A stretch of 64,000 nt of DNA from Streptomyces sp. NRRL F-5727 (lineage in GTDB: Bacteria > Actinomycetota > Actinomycetes > Streptomycetales > Streptomycetaceae). Positions within the stretch are counted from its first letter, which is position 1, and every line of letters starts with the position of its first letter. The stretch spans positions 1-64,000 of the forward strand of contig NZ_JOGX01000013.1 in the NCBI RefSeq assembly GCF_000719555.1. The letters are read 5' to 3'. The position numbers and the translations under genes are program-made. The notes beneath the pieces were generated by a model. That model was not told where the DNA came from and searched no databases. It worked only from the letters and a program-made list of their open reading frames with translations. Shown here piece after piece: positions 56,001-62,515 of this stretch.

Positions 56001-56669
56001 TTACGAGGCGAAGAGGCGGACGGGCCAGGCCGCGTGCTGTTCGGCGGTGATGTCGAGGAGCGGCGCGGAGGCGGCGGGCAGCGCGTCGATCCCTTCGCGG
56101 GCGGCGGCGGTGGCCCGCCGCGCGACCTCGTCCATCGCGGGTGCGAGCCGGGCGAGGACGCCGGTCGCCTGATAGGGGTCGAGGCCGAGGAGGCGTACGG
56201 TCGCGGTCGCGGGGCCGCCGACCGTCTCGTACGCGGCGCAGTGCGCGGCGTCCTCGGGGCCGAGTCCCGCCGCCCGGGCCGTGACGCCGAGGACGACGGG
56301 CTGGTGCGCGCCGCGCGGGAAGGCGGCGGCGAGCGCGTCGAGTTCGGGGTGCGGCCAGGCGGCGCGGGCGGCCCGCATCAACTGGCGGCCGAGCCGCCGG
56401 GCGGCGGTGCGCAGCGCGGGCGAGGGGGTGCGGGCGTCGGCGGCGGCGTCGAGCTCGTGCGGGTCGAGCCCGAGGGCCGCCGCGGCGGCGAGGCCCGCCG
56501 CGGTGAGCCCGACGGTGTGCAGACGCCCAAGGCAGAACGCTTCGAGCCCGGCGGCGTCGCGGATGCGCCCGGCCTTCACCGCGGCCTCGGCGCCGCCGGA
56601 GTGGGCGTGCCCGCCGGCGGGGAAGCGCCCGTCGGCGAGCACCAGGAGTGCGGAGCGGGAAGCGGTCAT
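56001..56669 (-). CDS. ureF: urease accessory protein UreF
   Basis: 222 residues, all-helical Ure[21 protein letters not shown] near the N-terminus, [16 protein letters not shown], and [20 protein letters not shown]. It binds UreD and gates UreG action. Its ATG 56669 shares one base with the ureC stop (TGATG). Confidence 0.92.
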
Positions 56670-58390
56670 CAGAAGAGGAAGTAGCGCTGTGCCATGGGCA
56701 GTTCCACAGCGGGGGCGGGTTCGACCGCTTCGCCGTCGATGGTGACGGTGAAGGTGTCGGCGTCGACCTCGACGCGCGGCAGGGCGTCGTTCTCCCGCAT
56801 GTCCGCCTTGGTGAGGCGGCGGGTGGAGCGGATCGGGGTGAACTCCTTGGCCAGGCCGAGCCGCTGGGGCAGGTCGTCCTCGATCGCCGCCTCGGCGGTG
56901 AAGTTGACGGAGCCGGCGGCCGCCGCCCGGCCGAGGGCGCCGAACATGGGGCGCGGCAGCACCGGTTGGGGCGTGGGGATCGAGGCGTTGGCGTCGCCCA
57001 TCTGCGCGTAGGCGATCTGGCCGCCCTTGAGGACGGCGAGCGGCTTCACCCCGAAGAAGGCGGGCTCCCACAGGACGAGGTCGGCGAGCTTGCCGGGTTC
57101 GACGGAGCCGATGAGGTGGTCCATGCCTTGGGCGACGGCCGGGTTGATCGTGTACTTGGCGACGTAGCGGCGCACCCGCCGGTTGTCGGCGCGGCTGTCC
57201 CCCGGCAGCGTGCCGCGCCGCTTCTTCATGACGTGGGCGGTCTGCCAGGTCCGCAGGATCACCTCGCCGATCCGGCCCATGGCCTGGGAGTCGGAGGAGA
57301 TGATCGAGATGGCGCCGAGGTCGTGGAGGACGTCCTCGGCGGCGATCGTGGACGGCCGGATCCGGGATTCGGCGAAGGCGAGGTCCTCGGGGACGGCGGG
57401 GTTGAGGTGGTGGCAGACCATCAGCATGTCGAGGTGTTCCTCGACGGTGTTGACGGTGTGCGGCCGGGTCGGGTTGGTCGAGCTGGGCAGCACGTACGGC
57501 TCGGAGACCACGGTGATGATGTCGGGCGCGTGCCCGCCGCCCGCGCCCTCGGTGTGATACGCGTGGATGGTCCGGCCCGCGACGGCGGCGAGGGTGTCGC
57601 CGACGAACCCGGCCTCGTTGAGGGTGTCGGTGTGGATGGCGAGCTGGGCGCCGGTCTCCTCGCAGACGCCGAGGCAGGCGTCGATGACGGCGGGGGTGGC
57701 CCCCCAGTCCTCGTGGATCTTGAAGCCGAGGGCGCCGCCGCGCAGCTGGGAGTGCATCGCCTCGCGGGACATGGTGGTGCCCTTGCCGAGGAGGCCGATG
57801 TTGACGGGGAAGGTGTCGAGGGCCTCGAACATCCGGGCGGTGTGCCAGGGGCCGGGGGTGACGGTGGTGGCCTTGGTGCCTTCGGCGGGCCCGGTGCCGC
57901 CGCCGACCAGGGTGGTGACGCCGGTGGCGAGCGCCTGCTCGACGACGGTCGGCGAGATGAAGTGGACGTGGGCGTCGACGGCGCCCGCGGTGACGATCCG
58001 CCCGTTGCCGACGACGACCTCGGTCTCGGGGCCGATGACGAGCTCGGGGTGGACGCCGTCCATGGTGTCGGGGTTGCCGGCCTTGCCGAGGGCGGTGATC
58101 CGGCCGTCGCGGATGCCGATGTCCGCTTTGACGATCCCCCAGTGGTCGATGACCACCGCACCGGTGATCACCGTGTCGGGGGCGCCTTCGGCGCGGGTGG
58201 TACGGGCCTGGCCCATCGACTCGCGGATGACCTTGCCGCCACCGAAGACGGCTTCCTCGCCGGCCCGGCCGGGGCCGCCGGAGCGGTCCTCCTCGATCTC
58301 CACCAGCAGGTCGGTGTCGGCGAGCCGGATCCGGTCGCCGGTGGTGGGGCCGAAGAGGTCGGCGTACACGGCGCGGTGGAGGTCAGGCAC
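56669..58390 (-). CDS. ureC: urease alpha subunit
   Basis: 573 residues. Nickel and catalytic regions all present: [10 protein letters not shown] (two His ligands), [15 protein letters not shown] (carbamylated Lys), [33 protein letters not shown] (active-site flap His) and [12 protein letters not shown]. It hydrolyses urea to ammonia and carbamate. GTG 58390 lies within ureB, overlapping it by 8 nt. Confidence 0.97.
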
Positions 58391-58775
58391 GGGGGGCTCC
58401 GTTCGGCGTCACGGGCTGCGGGGCGGCGGGACGGGACCCGGAGCCAGGGGCGCCGGACGCGTCCGGCGGGTCGAGGGGGCCGGCGGTCTCGCCGCGCAGC
58501 CCCGGGACGATCCGGCGGCCGGCGATCGGCACGAGTTCGACCTCGACGGGGATGCCGGGCTCGAAGCGGACGGCGGTCCCGGCGGCGATGTGCAGCCGCA
58601 GCCCGTGGGCGGCGGCGCGGTCGAAGTCGAGACCGGGGTTGACCTCGGCGAAGTGGTAGTGGGAGCCGACCTGGACGGGCCGGTCGGCGGCGTTCAGGAC
58701 GGTGAGGCGGGTGACGGGGCGGCCCTCGTTGAGGGGCACGGGCCCGACCGCGTACAGGATCTCTCCGGGGATCAT
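58383..58775 (-). CDS. ureB: urease beta subunit
   Basis: 130 residues: [58 protein letters not shown] are typical. A C-terminal Pro/Ala/Gly tail of about 30 residues exceeds the core length of UreB. It starts 15 nt after ureA and overlaps ureC. Confidence 0.95.
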
Positions 58776-58790
58776 CGGCTCAGGCCCCCG

Positions 58791-59093
<303 letters not shown>

Positions 59094-59255: not shown

Positions 59256-59888
59256 TCACCGGGTCGGCGGCGTGGCGGCGGTCACGTCCATCGACATGAG
59301 CCCGCGCAGCCCCTCCCTCAGGACGTCGATCTCGACGTCCCCGAAGAGCGCCTGCTGGGCGATGAAGCCCTGGACGGTGGCGATGAGGGTACGGGCCATG
59401 TCGGCGGAGGAGACGTCGGCGGGGACGAGGCCGTTGGCGCGGTACGCGTCGACGAGCCCCGTCCAGATCTCCCGCATGCCGCCGAAGCCCTGGGCGAGGG
59501 TCTTCGCCAGGTTCTCGTCCCGGAGGGTCTCCGCCCAGACCTGGATGATCAGGCGCGCGAACGCCTGCCGCTCCGCGCCGGCGATCCCCCCGTCCAGCAC
59601 GATCGTCAGCACCCGGGCGATCAGCACGTCGGGCAGGAGCGGCGGGCTCACCTCGGTGGCCTCCGTGAACGCACCGCGGATGCGGACGAAGGTCTCGTCG
59701 GCGATGGCCGCGATCAGTTCGTCCTTGCTCCGGAAGTAGCGGTAGACCGCACCGGCGGAGAGACCGGCCTCGGCGAGCACGTCCTGCATGGAGGTCGCGT
59801 GGAAGCCGTTGCGGGCGAAGCAGCGGGCAGCGCCGTCGAGGATCTGGCGGCGACGGGCGTCGAGGTGTTCCTGGGAGACACGGGCCAT
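59256..59888 (-). CDS. TetR-family transcriptional regulator
   Basis: 210 residues. HTH: MQDVLAEAGLSAGAVYRYFRSKDEL. The C-terminal part (FARLIIQVWAETLRDENLA) is the usual ligand domain. ATG 59888 lies only six bases past a -10-like TAGTTT, so the message is probably leaderless. Divergent from the membrane protein gene at 60063, which it likely represses, and from the urease operon in the other direction by 162 nt. Confidence 0.92.
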   Translation of the reverse strand: MARVSQEHLDARRRQILDGAARCFARNGFHATSMQDVLAEAGLSAGAVYRYFRSKDELIAAIADETFVRIRGAFTEATEVSPPLLPDVLIARVLTIVLDGGIAGAERQAFARLIIQVWAETLRDENLAKTLAQGFGGMREIWTGLVDAYRANGLVPADVSSADMARTLIATVQGFIAQQALFGDVEIDVLREGLRGLMSMDVTAATPPTR

Positions 59889-60062: not shown

Positions 60063-61064
60063 ATGTCCGCCGCCACCGCCCCCACCGCGGGGCGCAAGAC
60101 CCTCGCGGTACTCCTGCTCGTCCCCGCGCTCGCCGCCCTCGTCCTGTGGACCTTCGCCTGGCCCGCCGCCCGCATCGCCCCGCGCGACCTGCCCGTCGGC
60201 GTGGCCGGCCCGGCCGCGGCGGCGGACGGCTTCGCCCGCGAACTCGGACGTCACGAGGGGGCCTTCGAGGTCCACCGGTACGAGGACGCCGCCGCCGCGC
60301 GCTCCGCCGTCGAGAACCGGGAGGTCTACGGCGCGGTGGTCGTCACCCCCGCGGGCCCGGAACTGCTGACCGCCTCCGCCGGCAGCCCGGTCGTCGCCGG
60401 CCTGCTGCGCGAGGCCGTCACGGGCCGGGCGGCCGCCGAGGGCAGGACGGTCCCGGTCACCGACGTCGTCGCGCTGCCCTCGGGCGACCCGCGCGGCGCC
60501 GTGCTCGGCGCCAGCCTGCTGCCGCTCGCGATCGCGGGCGCCGCCACCGGTGCGGCCACCGTGCTCCTCGGCCTGCGCGGCGCCCGCGGCGCCGCGACCC
60601 TCGTCGGCGCCTCGGTGCTCGCGGGACTCACCGGCGCGGCGCTCGCGCACGGCTGGCTCGGCGCGCTGACCGGGAACGTCTGGGCGGAGGCCGGCGTGCT
60701 GTCGCTGACCGTGCTGGCGATCGGCGCGACCTTCGCGGGCCTCGCCACCGCGCTCGGCAGGCCCGGCTTCGGACTCGCCGCCGTGCTCACCATCCTCGCA
60801 GGCAACGCCTTCTCGGGCATGAGCAGCGCGCCGGAACTGCTGCCGTCCGGGATCGGTCTGCTCGGCCAGTGGCTGCCGCCGGGCGCGGGCGGCACGGCGC
60901 TCCGCTCCGTCGCCTACTTCGACGGCGCCGCCGCCGGCGGACCGCTGCTGGTCCTCTCCCTCTGGTCGGCCGCGGGCCTGGCGGCGCTGGCCTTCGGCGG
61001 CCGGCGGCGGACCGCGCCGGCTCCCGTACCGGCCCCGGCTCCGGTACCGACGGCGGCGGGCTGA
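60063..61064 (+). CDS. ABC-2/YhgE-like membrane protein
   Basis: 333 residues: an N-terminal transmembrane helix (LLLVPALAALVLWTFAWPA), an outside domain of about 100 residues (LPVGVAGPAAAADGFARELG, VYGAVVVTPAGPELLTA), then five further helices with a NAFSGMSSAPELLPSG loop, as in YhgE/Pip-like or ABC-2 permeases. No ATPase lies beside it. The likely role is efflux or membrane homeostasis under control of the divergent TetR. GAGG is upstream of ATG 60063. Confidence 0.8.
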   Translation: MSAATAPTAGRKTLAVLLLVPALAALVLWTFAWPAARIAPRDLPVGVAGPAAAADGFARELGRHEGAFEVHRYEDAAAARSAVENREVYGAVVVTPAGPELLTASAGSPVVAGLLREAVTGRAAAEGRTVPVTDVVALPSGDPRGAVLGASLLPLAIAGAATGAATVLLGLRGARGAATLVGASVLAGLTGAALAHGWLGALTGNVWAEAGVLSLTVLAIGATFAGLATALGRPGFGLAAVLTILAGNAFSGMSSAPELLPSGIGLLGQWLPPGAGGTALRSVAYFDGAAAGGPLLVLSLWSAAGLAALAFGGRRRTAPAPVPAPAPVPTAAG

Positions 61065-61220: not shown

Positions 61221-61520
61221 TCAGCGCGCGCCGGGCTCGCGGTGGTGGGCGGCGATGCCGAAGCGGCGCTGTTCACCGGTGGCGGAACCGAGACCGCCCG
61301 CGATCCCCGTACCGGAGACCGAACTGATCACCGGGCCGTCGGCCGGCTCCGGCGCCTCCGCCTCCAGCTTCTCCAGTCGTTCCAGGTCAGCGGCGGAGAC
61401 CAGGGCGACGAGCGGCTTCCCGTGGCGGGTCACGACCACGCGCTCGCCGCCGTACACCACGCGGTTGATGAGGTCGGCGAGCTCCGCCCGCGCTTGCGTC
61501 ACCGGGATCTCGTAGGTCAT
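61221..61520 (-). CDS. Phd/YefM-type antitoxin without adjacent toxin
   Basis: 99 residues. The N-terminal ~55 residues are the Phd/YefM fold (IPVTQARAELADLINRVVYG, ERVVVTRHGKPLVALVSAAD), which dimerises and binds DNA. The C-terminal tail is longer than usual and would be the toxin-binding part, but no Doc-, RelE- or PIN-like gene lies next to it on either side. It is divergent from a ClpP-like gene with a shared control region carrying a palindrome. ATG 61520 has GAGGAGC upstream. Confidence 0.85.
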   Translation of the reverse strand: MTYEIPVTQARAELADLINRVVYGGERVVVTRHGKPLVALVSAADLERLEKLEAEAPEPADGPVISSVSGTGIAGGLGSATGEQRRFGIAAHHREPGAR

Positions 61521-61538
61521 GCTCCTCATCTTACGGCC

Positions 61539-61553
61539 TGTACGTCCTGTACA
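61539..61553. promoter_or_regulatory. palindromic operator between phd and clpP-like gene
   Basis: TGTAC-GTCCT-GTACA is a perfect inverted repeat at 61539-61553, centred in the 58-nt divergent gap; CTGTAC also occurs as a direct repeat. Phd-family proteins bind short palindromes of this type in their own promoters. Confidence 0.65.
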
Positions 61554-61578
61554 TTTTTGACAGAAGGAGGTGCTCCTC

Positions 61579-62202
61579 ATGGACGCGCGCCACGTACTGC
61601 CGGAGTTCTCGGAGCGGACCTCGTACGGCACCCGGACCCTCGACCCGTACACGAAGCTTCTGGAGAACCGGGTGGTCTTCCTCGGCACGACGGTCGACGA
61701 CGTCACCGCGAGCGATGTGATCGCCCAGCTCCTGTATCTGGACGCCGACGCCCCCGGCCGGGACATCGCGCTCTACCTCAACTCCCCCGGCGGCTCGATC
61801 ACCGCGATGACCGCGATCCACGACACGATGCGCAGCCTGGCGAGCGACGTGGAGACGACCTGTCTCGGACACGCGGGTTCCACGGCGGCGGTCCTGCTCG
61901 CCGCCGGCACGCCCGGGAAGCGGATGATGCTGCCCGGCGCCCGGGTCACCCTGCGCCAGCCGGTCCTGGACGAGCCGTTCGCCGGACAGCCCTCGGACCT
62001 GGAGCTCCAGGCGCGCGAAATGGGGCGGCTGCGCGCCGTGATGACGGGGCTGCTCTCCGCGTACACCGGTCACGGCGAGGCTCGGATCACCGCCGACACC
62101 GACCGCCCGACCGTCCTCGACGCGCCGTCCGCGCTCGCGTACGGCCTGGTCGACCACATCGTCAGCGACCGCCGGACGGCCTCCGGCACGTCGGCCCGGT
62201 GA
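61579..62202 (+). CDS. ClpP-family protein with degenerate catalytic triad
   Basis: 207 residues, full ClpP length and fold: VFLGTTVDDVTASDVIAQLL, YLNSPGGSITAMTAI, CLGHAGSTAAVLLAAG (nucleophile Ser101). By comparison with E. coli ClpP (Ser, then His 25 residues on in MIHQP, then Asp in TERD), here the His position is Arg126 (TLRQP) and the Asp position is Pro177 (TDRP). Two triad members are therefore lost. It may act as a non-catalytic ring subunit, as ClpR does in cyanobacteria. ATG 61579 follows GAAGGAGG; a GTG at 61570 overlaps that ribosome site and is rejected. Confidence 0.9.
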   Translation: MDARHVLPEFSERTSYGTRTLDPYTKLLENRVVFLGTTVDDVTASDVIAQLLYLDADAPGRDIALYLNSPGGSITAMTAIHDTMRSLASDVETTCLGHAGSTAAVLLAAGTPGKRMMLPGARVTLRQPVLDEPFAGQPSDLELQAREMGRLRAVMTGLLSAYTGHGEARITADTDRPTVLDAPSALAYGLVDHIVSDRRTASGTSAR

Positions 62203-62209
62203 GGCCGCG

Positions 62210-62515
62210 ATGGTGCCGGAGCTTCCGCCGCTGCCCGCCCTGACGCGCGCCGAGGGGCAGTTGATCGACGCGTACCTCGAAGTCGTCGACCTCCTGGGGA
62301 AGATCAATCCATCCAGGGGTTCGCATACGTATGGGGCGCTGCGTGCGGCACAGGCGCTGGTCGGAAGGGTGGAGGCGCTGCGCGAGGCGCTGACGCTCAT
62401 GCATATGCGGGGTGAGAGCGAGGTCCACGCGGAGACATTGGCCTGTGCGCTGCGGGTGTTGGACGGTGAGCGGCGGGCCGCCCGCGTCACCGTCCCCGGA
62501 ACACGGGCCAGTTGA
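62210..62515 (+). CDS. hypothetical helical protein
   Basis: 101 residues, predicted mostly alpha-helical (LTRAEGQLIDAYLEVVDLLG, TLACALRVLDGERRAARVTV). Its ATG follows the ClpP-like stop by 7 nt, so the two are probably one transcript; GTGAGG at the ClpP end serves as ribosome site. No family recognised. It could be an adaptor or partner of the ClpP-like protein by position only. Confidence 0.7.
   Translation: MVPELPPLPALTRAEGQLIDAYLEVVDLLGKINPSRGSHTYGALRAAQALVGRVEALREALTLMHMRGESEVHAETLACALRVLDGERRAARVTVPGTRAS

What the first reader, a model, noticed from the sequence alone, without database searches (positions are those of the whole stretch)
61221..62515. Orphan Phd antitoxin divergent from a ClpP homologue that has lost two triad residues
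A Phd/YefM-type antitoxin with no toxin gene shares a 58-nt control region and a perfect palindrome with a ClpP-family gene. The ClpP protein keeps Ser101 but has Arg126 for the catalytic His and Pro177 for the Asp, judged by residue spacing against E. coli ClpP. P1 Phd is known to be degraded by ClpXP, so a Phd-type protein controlling (or controlled by) a ClpR-like protein plus a small helical protein could be an unrecognised regulatory or stress module.
Basis: partly seen in the sequence, partly recalled or inferred. Interest (0 to 1): 0.7.

Follow-up and report, generated by a model that had tools for sequence, protein, structure and literature searches.

The report
Pseudo-ClpP gene under orphan Phd regulator
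A widely conserved Streptomyces gene for a ClpP protease subunit has repeatedly lost its cutting residues while keeping its shape, and it sits with an antitoxin-type DNA-binding protein that has no toxin, which suggests a dedicated, tightly controlled non-cutting part of the cell's protein-degrading machine.

Summary
Confirmed, and wider than claimed. The window gene is the stand-alone (ClpP5-type) ClpP of its genus (Streptomyces, inferred). Of 199 same-genus genomes sampled, 149 carry an intact copy; 92 of 149 lack the Ser-His-Asp triad and 57 keep it, against no loss in 30 ClpP1 and 30 ClpP2. Different clades lost different residues (about 18-24 events), yet dN/dS stays well below 1. The P2-like member of clpP3-clpP4 pairs also lost its His in 19 of 19, its P1-like partner in none. 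I infer that ClpP5 is a non-catalytic, P2-type docking ring for ClpP1. The Phd-type gene has no recognised toxin beside it and shares a 26-bp operator with clpP5: 142 of 199 genomes hold one near-match each, the reversed control none; it stays by clpP5 in 37 of 38 loci where phd lies far off. Phd tracks clpP5, not its other neighbour urease. Not shown: Phd binding or repression, assembly with ClpP1, the third gene's role, any stress link. In at least 8 of 199 genomes clpP5 is broken or missing beside a kept small gene, so decay remains a serious rival.

The parts
61221..61520 (-). Phd/YefM-family gene without recognised toxin; near-invariant DNA-binding N-half and a short conserved C-terminal RFGIAA[E/H]HR segment (start 61520 preferred, 61529 possible)
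   Evidence: Pfam/NCBIfam hits; alignment of 198 distinct orthologues; neighbours
61539..61564 (.). 26-bp operator TGTACGTCCTGTACATTTTTGACAGA: two GTAC cores 9 bp apart and a degenerate third core 9 bp on; contains the palindrome 61539-61553
   Evidence: 153 of 174 distinct intergenic regions within 3 mismatches of the consensus; cores 9 bp apart in 170 of 174; a 25-base version matches once per genome in 142 of 199 genomes, control 0; single copy in own genome with a 19-base version
61579..62202 (+). clpP5-type gene, 207 aa, ClpP fold with S101, R126, P177 at the Ser-His-Asp positions
62210..62515 (+). small 101-aa protein, three predicted helices, probably on the clpP5 transcript (7-nt gap here; 4-11 nt in 191 of 212 orthologues, start extrapolated)
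   Evidence: no Pfam, NCBIfam or PHROG family

Best explanation
clpP5 encodes a P2-type Clp ring subunit freed from catalysis. It most likely assembles with the catalytic ClpP1 ring (ClpP1 and ClpP2 are the only other ClpPs of this genome) and offers an alternative docking face for Clp ATPases or adaptors, so that it retunes rather than performs proteolysis. Its operon (clpP5 plus the small gene) is controlled at one dedicated 26-bp operator, most likely repressed by the toxin-less Phd-family protein encoded divergently. Shown by sequence: recurrent loss of the triad, purifying selection, closeness to ClpP2, operator conservation and co-occurrence with Phd. Inferred: Phd binding and repression, co-transcription with the small gene, assembly with ClpP1, altered docking.
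For: Triad lost in 92 of 149 intact genus orthologues versus 0 of 30 ClpP1 and 0 of 30 ClpP2. Among 58 columns invariant in all 60 of those ClpP1/ClpP2, ClpP5 keeps a median 98%, and the triad columns His, Asp and Ser are 2nd, 5th and 9th most variable. Tyr62, Gly68, Leu114 and Arg192 (mature E. coli numbering) stay near-invariant. About 18 parsimony changes or 24 Dollo losses. Median dN/dS 0.40 in triad-less pairs, 0.32 in full-triad pairs. 52% identity to own ClpP2, 40% to own ClpP1. In the ClpP1P2 enzyme a ClpP2 Ser mutant kept full activity and ClpP2 carries the ATPase docking face (PMC9765437, passages and section 8). At the pocket residue that paper found to be Tyr in ClpP1 and Ser in ClpP2, ClpP5 has Ser/Ala/Thr/Cys in 208 of 214 and never Tyr/Phe. 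In clpP3-clpP4 pairs the P2-like member lost His in 19 of 19, the P1-like member is SHD in 19 of 19. Operator and Phd.
Against: No assembly, binding or expression data. 57 of 149 orthologues keep the full triad, and ClpP2 itself keeps it in 30 of 30, so P2-type catalysis is not simply useless. The pocket residue is no clean marker: ClpP1 has Tyr 19, Phe 9, Asn 2 of 30, ClpP2 Ser 29, Tyr 1 of 30, and the catalytic P1-like members of the extra pairs have Ser in 13 and Gly in 4 of 21. Other columns fixed in ClpP1/ClpP2 have loosened as much as the triad. ClpP5 is far less conserved than ClpP2 (listed genus hits mostly 55-65%, against 86-98%), and at least 8 of 199 genomes hold a broken or missing clpP5 while keeping the small gene, so it is dispensable. 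An S. cattleya study reports a shorter RelB half-life with four of six ClpPs co-expressed with ClpX in E. coli (PMC4989188 section 9); which of the six is this orthologue I did not establish.
Confidence: 0.45

Rival explanations
1. ClpP5 is a redundant paralogue under relaxed selection on the way to loss; the missing triad residues are early steps of decay and there is no special function.
For: Broken or absent clpP5 with the small gene kept in at least 8 of 199 sampled genomes (G087, G107, G145, G170, G172, G187, G192, G197; some frame breaks may be sequencing errors and G192 lies at a contig end); dN/dS higher in triad-less pairs (0.40 vs 0.32); mean column entropy higher (1.03 vs 0.81); several non-catalytic columns loosened too.
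Against: Intact reading frame in 149 of 199 genomes, dN/dS far below 1, most columns fixed in ClpP1/ClpP2 still kept (median 98%), operator kept almost letter for letter.
Confidence: 0.25
2. Toxin-antitoxin-like pair with ClpP5 in the toxin's place: the conserved C-terminal segment of Phd binds ClpP5 (or a Clp ATPase), so that Clp state feeds back on operator binding.
For: A C-terminal RFGIAA[E/H]HR segment is conserved across a variable linker in an alignment of 198 distinct Phd orthologues although no toxin is recognised; its IAA core is found also in loci with a clpP and Phd but no small gene detected (L047, L053, L263).
Against: A strict form of the motif is kept in 134 of 148 genomes with intact clpP5 and 3 of 7 others (Fisher p 0.004), but the strict form was chosen after looking, the same variants occur beside intact clpP5, and the rows are not independent. 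No binding data.
Confidence: 0.12
3. The Phd gene belongs with the urease operon beside it; its link to clpP5 is only neighbourhood, and another factor uses the 26-bp operator.
For: Of 110 loci (duplicates included) with phd and ureA both on the stretch, ureA follows phd on the same strand within 400 bp in 58; 6 of 20 loci fetched for a phd that is distant from clpP5 or lacks it show ureA 211-545 bp downstream. In 19 of these 20 no paired GTAC cores lie within 160 nt upstream of phd.
Against: 36 of 43 genomes without phd still have urease, whereas a phd was read in 148 of 149 genomes with intact clpP5; TGTACA cores are the known YefM-type operator.
Confidence: 0.1
4. ClpP5 forms an inert ring of its own that sequesters Clp ATPases or ClpP1 as a brake rather than forming a working mixed protease.
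For: Same sequence facts: fold kept, catalysis lost.
Against: Nothing here separates it from the best explanation; triad-intact orthologues with the same neighbours suggest a working context originally.
Confidence: 0.08

Closest known systems
Streptomyces ClpP2 in the ClpP1P2 protease (PMC9765437, passages and section 8 seen)
   Same: Closer own-genome paralogue (52% against 40% for ClpP1), same fold; ClpP2 catalysis was dispensable in that paper's assays
   Different: ClpP2 keeps Ser-His-Asp in 30 of 30 genomes and is 86-98% identical to the window genome's copy in the best locus of each genome; ClpP5 lost the triad in 92 of 149 and has its own operator
Streptomyces clpP3-clpP4 operon under PopR (PMC9765437, PMC9775585, passages seen)
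   Same: Extra ClpP set under a dedicated regulator; its P2-like member has lost His in 19 of 19 loci read here
   Different: Two-gene pair with its own catalytic partner and a TCTGCC-type PopR site; clpP5 stands without a P1-like partner gene, with a Phd-type gene and a GTAC-core operator
ClpR subunits of cyanobacteria and plastids (recalled)
   Same: ClpP homologues without a full triad kept under selection
   Different: Different lineage; here the loss is recurrent with many replacement residues
YefM-YoeB / Axe-Txe operators (PMC7730913; Streptomyces yefM-yoeB, PMC3303803; passages seen)
   Same: Phd/YefM DNA-binding domain, paired TGTACA-type palindromes at a promoter
   Different: No recognised toxin gene; cores spaced 9 bp (not 12) and the flanking target is a clpP gene

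Membership tests
ClpP peptidase family (PF00574) | ClpP fold and family profile | tested here: met
ClpP peptidase family (PF00574) | Ser-His-Asp catalytic triad | tested here: not met
   S101, R126, P177
NCBIfam ClpP models | score above the curated cut-off | tested here: not met
   best subfamily PRK12553 225.8 bits against 228; equivalog TIGR00493 189.9 against 308.6
Streptomyces ClpP5 | single-gene fifth ClpP besides clpP1-clpP2 and clpP3-clpP4 | tested here: inconclusive
   By elimination in five-ClpP genomes; the S. lividans clpP5 sequence itself was not seen
ClpR-type inactive subunit | loss of catalytic residues with the fold under purifying selection | tested here: met
ClpR-type inactive subunit | assembly in a mixed ring or core with active ClpP | not testable with these tools
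   needs purified proteins
Phd/YefM type II antitoxin | Phd/YefM N-terminal DNA-binding domain | tested here: met
Phd/YefM type II antitoxin | cognate toxin gene adjacent | tested here: not met
   Window: neighbours are ClpP, TetR and ABC-2 families. Relatives: of 194 phd loci with 500 bp or more downstream, 16 had a coding-like same-strand ORF within 150 bp, 8 of them UreA by eye, the rest not toxin-like by eye; not scanned against a toxin library
Phd/YefM type II antitoxin | TGTACA-type palindromic operator by the gene | tested here: met
   spacing differs from YefM (9 vs 12 bp, PMC7730913)
Phd/YefM type II antitoxin | binds that operator | not testable with these tools
   needs gel shift

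The most novel reading that the evidence does not exclude
A toxin-antitoxin architecture re-used as a protease rheostat: the antitoxin-type repressor keeps a conserved C-terminal peptide that reads the Clp machine (ClpP5 or an ATPase) instead of a toxin, and the gene in the toxin's functional slot is a catalytically dead ClpP2-type ring that is switched in when Phd is removed by Clp, closing a feedback loop.
Probability: 0.15. Interest if true: 0.82.

Novelty: new variant of a known kind. Interest (0 to 1): 0.6.

Why it matters
It offers a simple, testable rule for the unusually complex Streptomyces Clp system: in the copies examined, P1-lineage rings keep the catalysis, and P2-lineage copies other than ClpP2 itself are free to lose it and may act as docking rings. 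It names a candidate regulator and operator for a clpP gene whose control and role I did not find described in the papers seen. Clp is an antibiotic target (ADEP), so knowing which rings cut and which only dock bears on how the machine is built and drugged.

Tried and rejected
Co-evolution of the Phd C-terminal motif with clpP5 loss looked striking but did not hold when counted: the strict motif was picked after looking and its variants occur beside intact clpP5. Kept as a lead only.

Full triad goes with having clpP3-clpP4: 44 of 75 genomes with 4-5 clpP matches keep SHD against 13 of 74 with 3 (Fisher p 2.7e-7), but in phylogenetically independent pairs the effect is not significant (8 pairs, median p 0.5). 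Not used as evidence.

The contrast of full-triad and triad-less groups by column entropy is circular for the triad columns, because the groups were made by them; (columns fixed in ClpP1 and ClpP2) replaces it.

In-frame TGA flagged in some clpP5 hits: no stop lies inside the matched frame of those loci; not pursued.

The small protein: no family; AlphaFold2 only moderate (pLDDT 72); no PDB fold match at E 0.001 or better. In another actinobacterial family no clpP or Phd match lies on the three stretches fetched (L136-L138); neighbours read by eye as LysR- and GNAT-like. Function left open.

Paper searches listed no paper that I recognised as reporting triad loss in ClpP5 or a Phd-clpP5 link; I opened only some. 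Viala 2000, the primary paper on the S. lividans clpP family, was not read. Seen: passages of PMC9765437 plus its section 8; passages of PMC12607617, PMC9775585, PMC2635970, PMC3303803 and PMC7730913; passages plus section 9 of PMC4989188. Others: listings only.

Full report
1. What is there. The window end carries, from left to right, a Phd/YefM-type gene on the minus strand (61221-61520, or 61529), a 58-nt control region, a ClpP gene on the plus strand (61579-62202) and a 101-codon gene 7 nt behind it (62210-62515). Domain searches confirm Phd/YefM and ClpP; the third protein matches no Pfam, NCBIfam or PHROG family. Ser101 is kept, Arg126 and Pro177 stand where E. coli has His and Asp (the E. 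coli sequence was recalled).

3. The unit is conserved. 64 named loci were fetched; Phd, ClpP and the small protein recur together in most of the Streptomyces among them, and two or three of the genes in other actinobacteria (L047, L052, L053, L054, L139). In a sample of 199 same-genus genomes (own included), 149 have an intact clpP5 beside the small gene or Phd: the small gene is next to it in 148; Phd lies divergently within 350 bp in 120, at 350-1800 bp in 13, and off the fetched stretch in 16. Searched alone, Phd is found in 156 of 199 (E 1e-15 or better) and the small protein in 160 of 199 (E 1e-6 or better). In a class-wide sample the small protein occurs in 37 of 394 genomes, 6 of them outside the genus.

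4. The triad is lost again and again. Of the 149, 57 keep Ser-His-Asp and 92 do not. Over 214 distinct sequences (named loci and genome samples pooled, identical ones removed) 67 are SHD; Ser is replaced in 49, His in 132, Asp in 47, the last count including Glu and Asn. Controls: ClpP1 30 of 30 and ClpP2 30 of 30 SHD. A FastTree tree without the triad columns gives 18 changes by parsimony, 24 losses if regain is barred (branch support was not examined). Of 58 columns invariant in those 60 ClpP1/ClpP2, ClpP5 keeps a median 98%; His, Asp and Ser of the triad are the 2nd, 5th and 9th most variable, but other columns (E. coli precursor positions 85, 110, 95, 62) are among the loosest too. Median NG86 dN/dS is 0.40 for triad-less pairs, 0.32 for full-triad pairs, and 0.22-0.26 for the small gene and phd (pairs with dS 0.15-1.0, not independent). 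So this is neither a local accident nor free drift, although decay does happen: at least 8 of 199 genomes keep the small gene with clpP5 broken or not found; further genomes with a small-gene match but no listed clpP5 (G016, G061, G106, G148) were not read there.

5. A wider rule. In 19 clpP3-clpP4-type pairs the P1-like member is SHD in 19 of 19, the P2-like member has Gly for His in 19 of 19 (18 SGD, 1 SGE); two further extra pairs (L262, L374) show SQA and SQD in the P2-like member with SHD partners (20 stretches plus L262). In Streptomyces ClpP1P2 the ClpP1 site does the cutting, a ClpP2 Ser mutant keeps full activity, and ClpP2 carries the ATPase docking face (PMC9765437, passages and section 8). 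The pocket residue that differs there (Tyr in ClpP1, Ser in ClpP2) is Ser/Ala/Thr/Cys in 208 of 214 ClpP5 and never aromatic; but it is no clean marker, since ClpP1 has Tyr 19, Phe 9, Asn 2 of 30, ClpP2 Ser 29, Tyr 1 of 30, and the P1-like members of the extra pairs have Ser in 13 and Gly in 4 of 21. Also ClpP2 itself keeps its triad everywhere examined. Hence an inference only: ClpP5 is a P2-type docking ring that needs no catalysis and borrows it from ClpP1.

6. The control region. The consensus TGTACGTCCTGTACATTTTTTACAGA is within 3 mismatches in 153 of 174 distinct phd-clpP intergenic regions (loci with phd within about 420 bp and a ClpP match over 180 aa); GTAC cores 9 bp apart in 170 of 174, third core TTAC in 126 and GTAC in 18. 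Genome-wide it is single: a 25-base version matches once in each of 142 of 199 genomes at 3 mismatches or fewer, the reversed control nowhere; a 19-base version matches once in the own genome. In 38 loci with intact clpP5 and phd farther away or not on the stretch (a few from sister genomes), the best match, at 7 mismatches or fewer, starts 55-142 nt before the ClpP match in 37; the exception is L142, where it lies by phd (counted by reading). Twenty stretches around a phd that is distant from clpP5 or lacks it were fetched: in 19 no paired cores lie within 160 nt upstream of phd; G016 has them. YefM-type antitoxins bind TGTACA cores spaced 12 bp (PMC7730913, PMC3303803, passages). The bare pattern GTAC-N5-GTAC is not rare by itself: 3 in the window, 52 in 260 kb of other fetched stretches, some overlapping. 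A TANNNT -10 (TACATT) for clpP5 inside the element and TAAGAT before phd are my reading of the sequence, not tested.

7. No recognised toxin. In the window the neighbours are ClpP, TetR and ABC-2 families. Of 194 phd loci with 500 bp or more downstream, 16 had a coding-like same-strand ORF within 150 bp, 8 of them UreA by eye, the rest not toxin-like by eye. Of 110 loci with phd and ureA both on the stretch (duplicates included) ureA follows within 400 bp on the same strand in 58. Urease does not explain Phd: 36 of 43 phd-less genomes have urease, whereas a Phd was read in 148 of 149 genomes with intact clpP5.

8. Phd itself. Its first half is nearly invariant; after a variable linker comes a conserved RFGIAA[E/H]HR segment (198 distinct sequences). 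Its partner is unknown; a link to clpP5 presence did not survive counting.

9. Judgement. A real, conserved module around a pseudo-ClpP, not described in the papers seen, made of known parts in a new arrangement. The mechanism beyond the sequence level is inference.

Noticed in passing
L355-L373 (clpP3-clpP4-type pairs of unnamed same-genus genomes): The P2-like member has Gly in place of the catalytic His in 19 of 19 loci, while the P1-like member is intact; I saw no mention of this in the passages read.
   Followed up: partly
L262, L374 (genomes G162, G004): An extra clpP1-clpP2-like pair (P2-like members 83% identical to each other) whose P2-like member has SQA or SQD at the triad.
   Followed up: partly
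window 56669-59093 (-), 59256-59888 (-), 60063-61064 (+): Urease genes lie next to the unit (ureA/B/C named by eye and by ureA matches); in the window a TetR-family gene and an ABC-2-type membrane gene sit between phd and ureA, while in many relatives phd directly precedes ureA.
   Followed up: partly
L136-L138, L142: The small protein occurs in another actinobacterial family without a clpP or Phd match on the fetched stretch; G440 has a second copy (L142) with its own full-triad clpP and a phd.
   Followed up: no
L025, L066, L148, L164, L242: Different genes (by eye acyltransferase-, excalibur-, flavin-oxidase- and trypsin-like, and an unknown one in L148) lie between phd and the operator-clpP5 part, different in each locus.
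   Followed up: no
L004: A record titled Microtetraspora glauca carries a unit 92% identical to the window's; the species label may be wrong.
   Followed up: no
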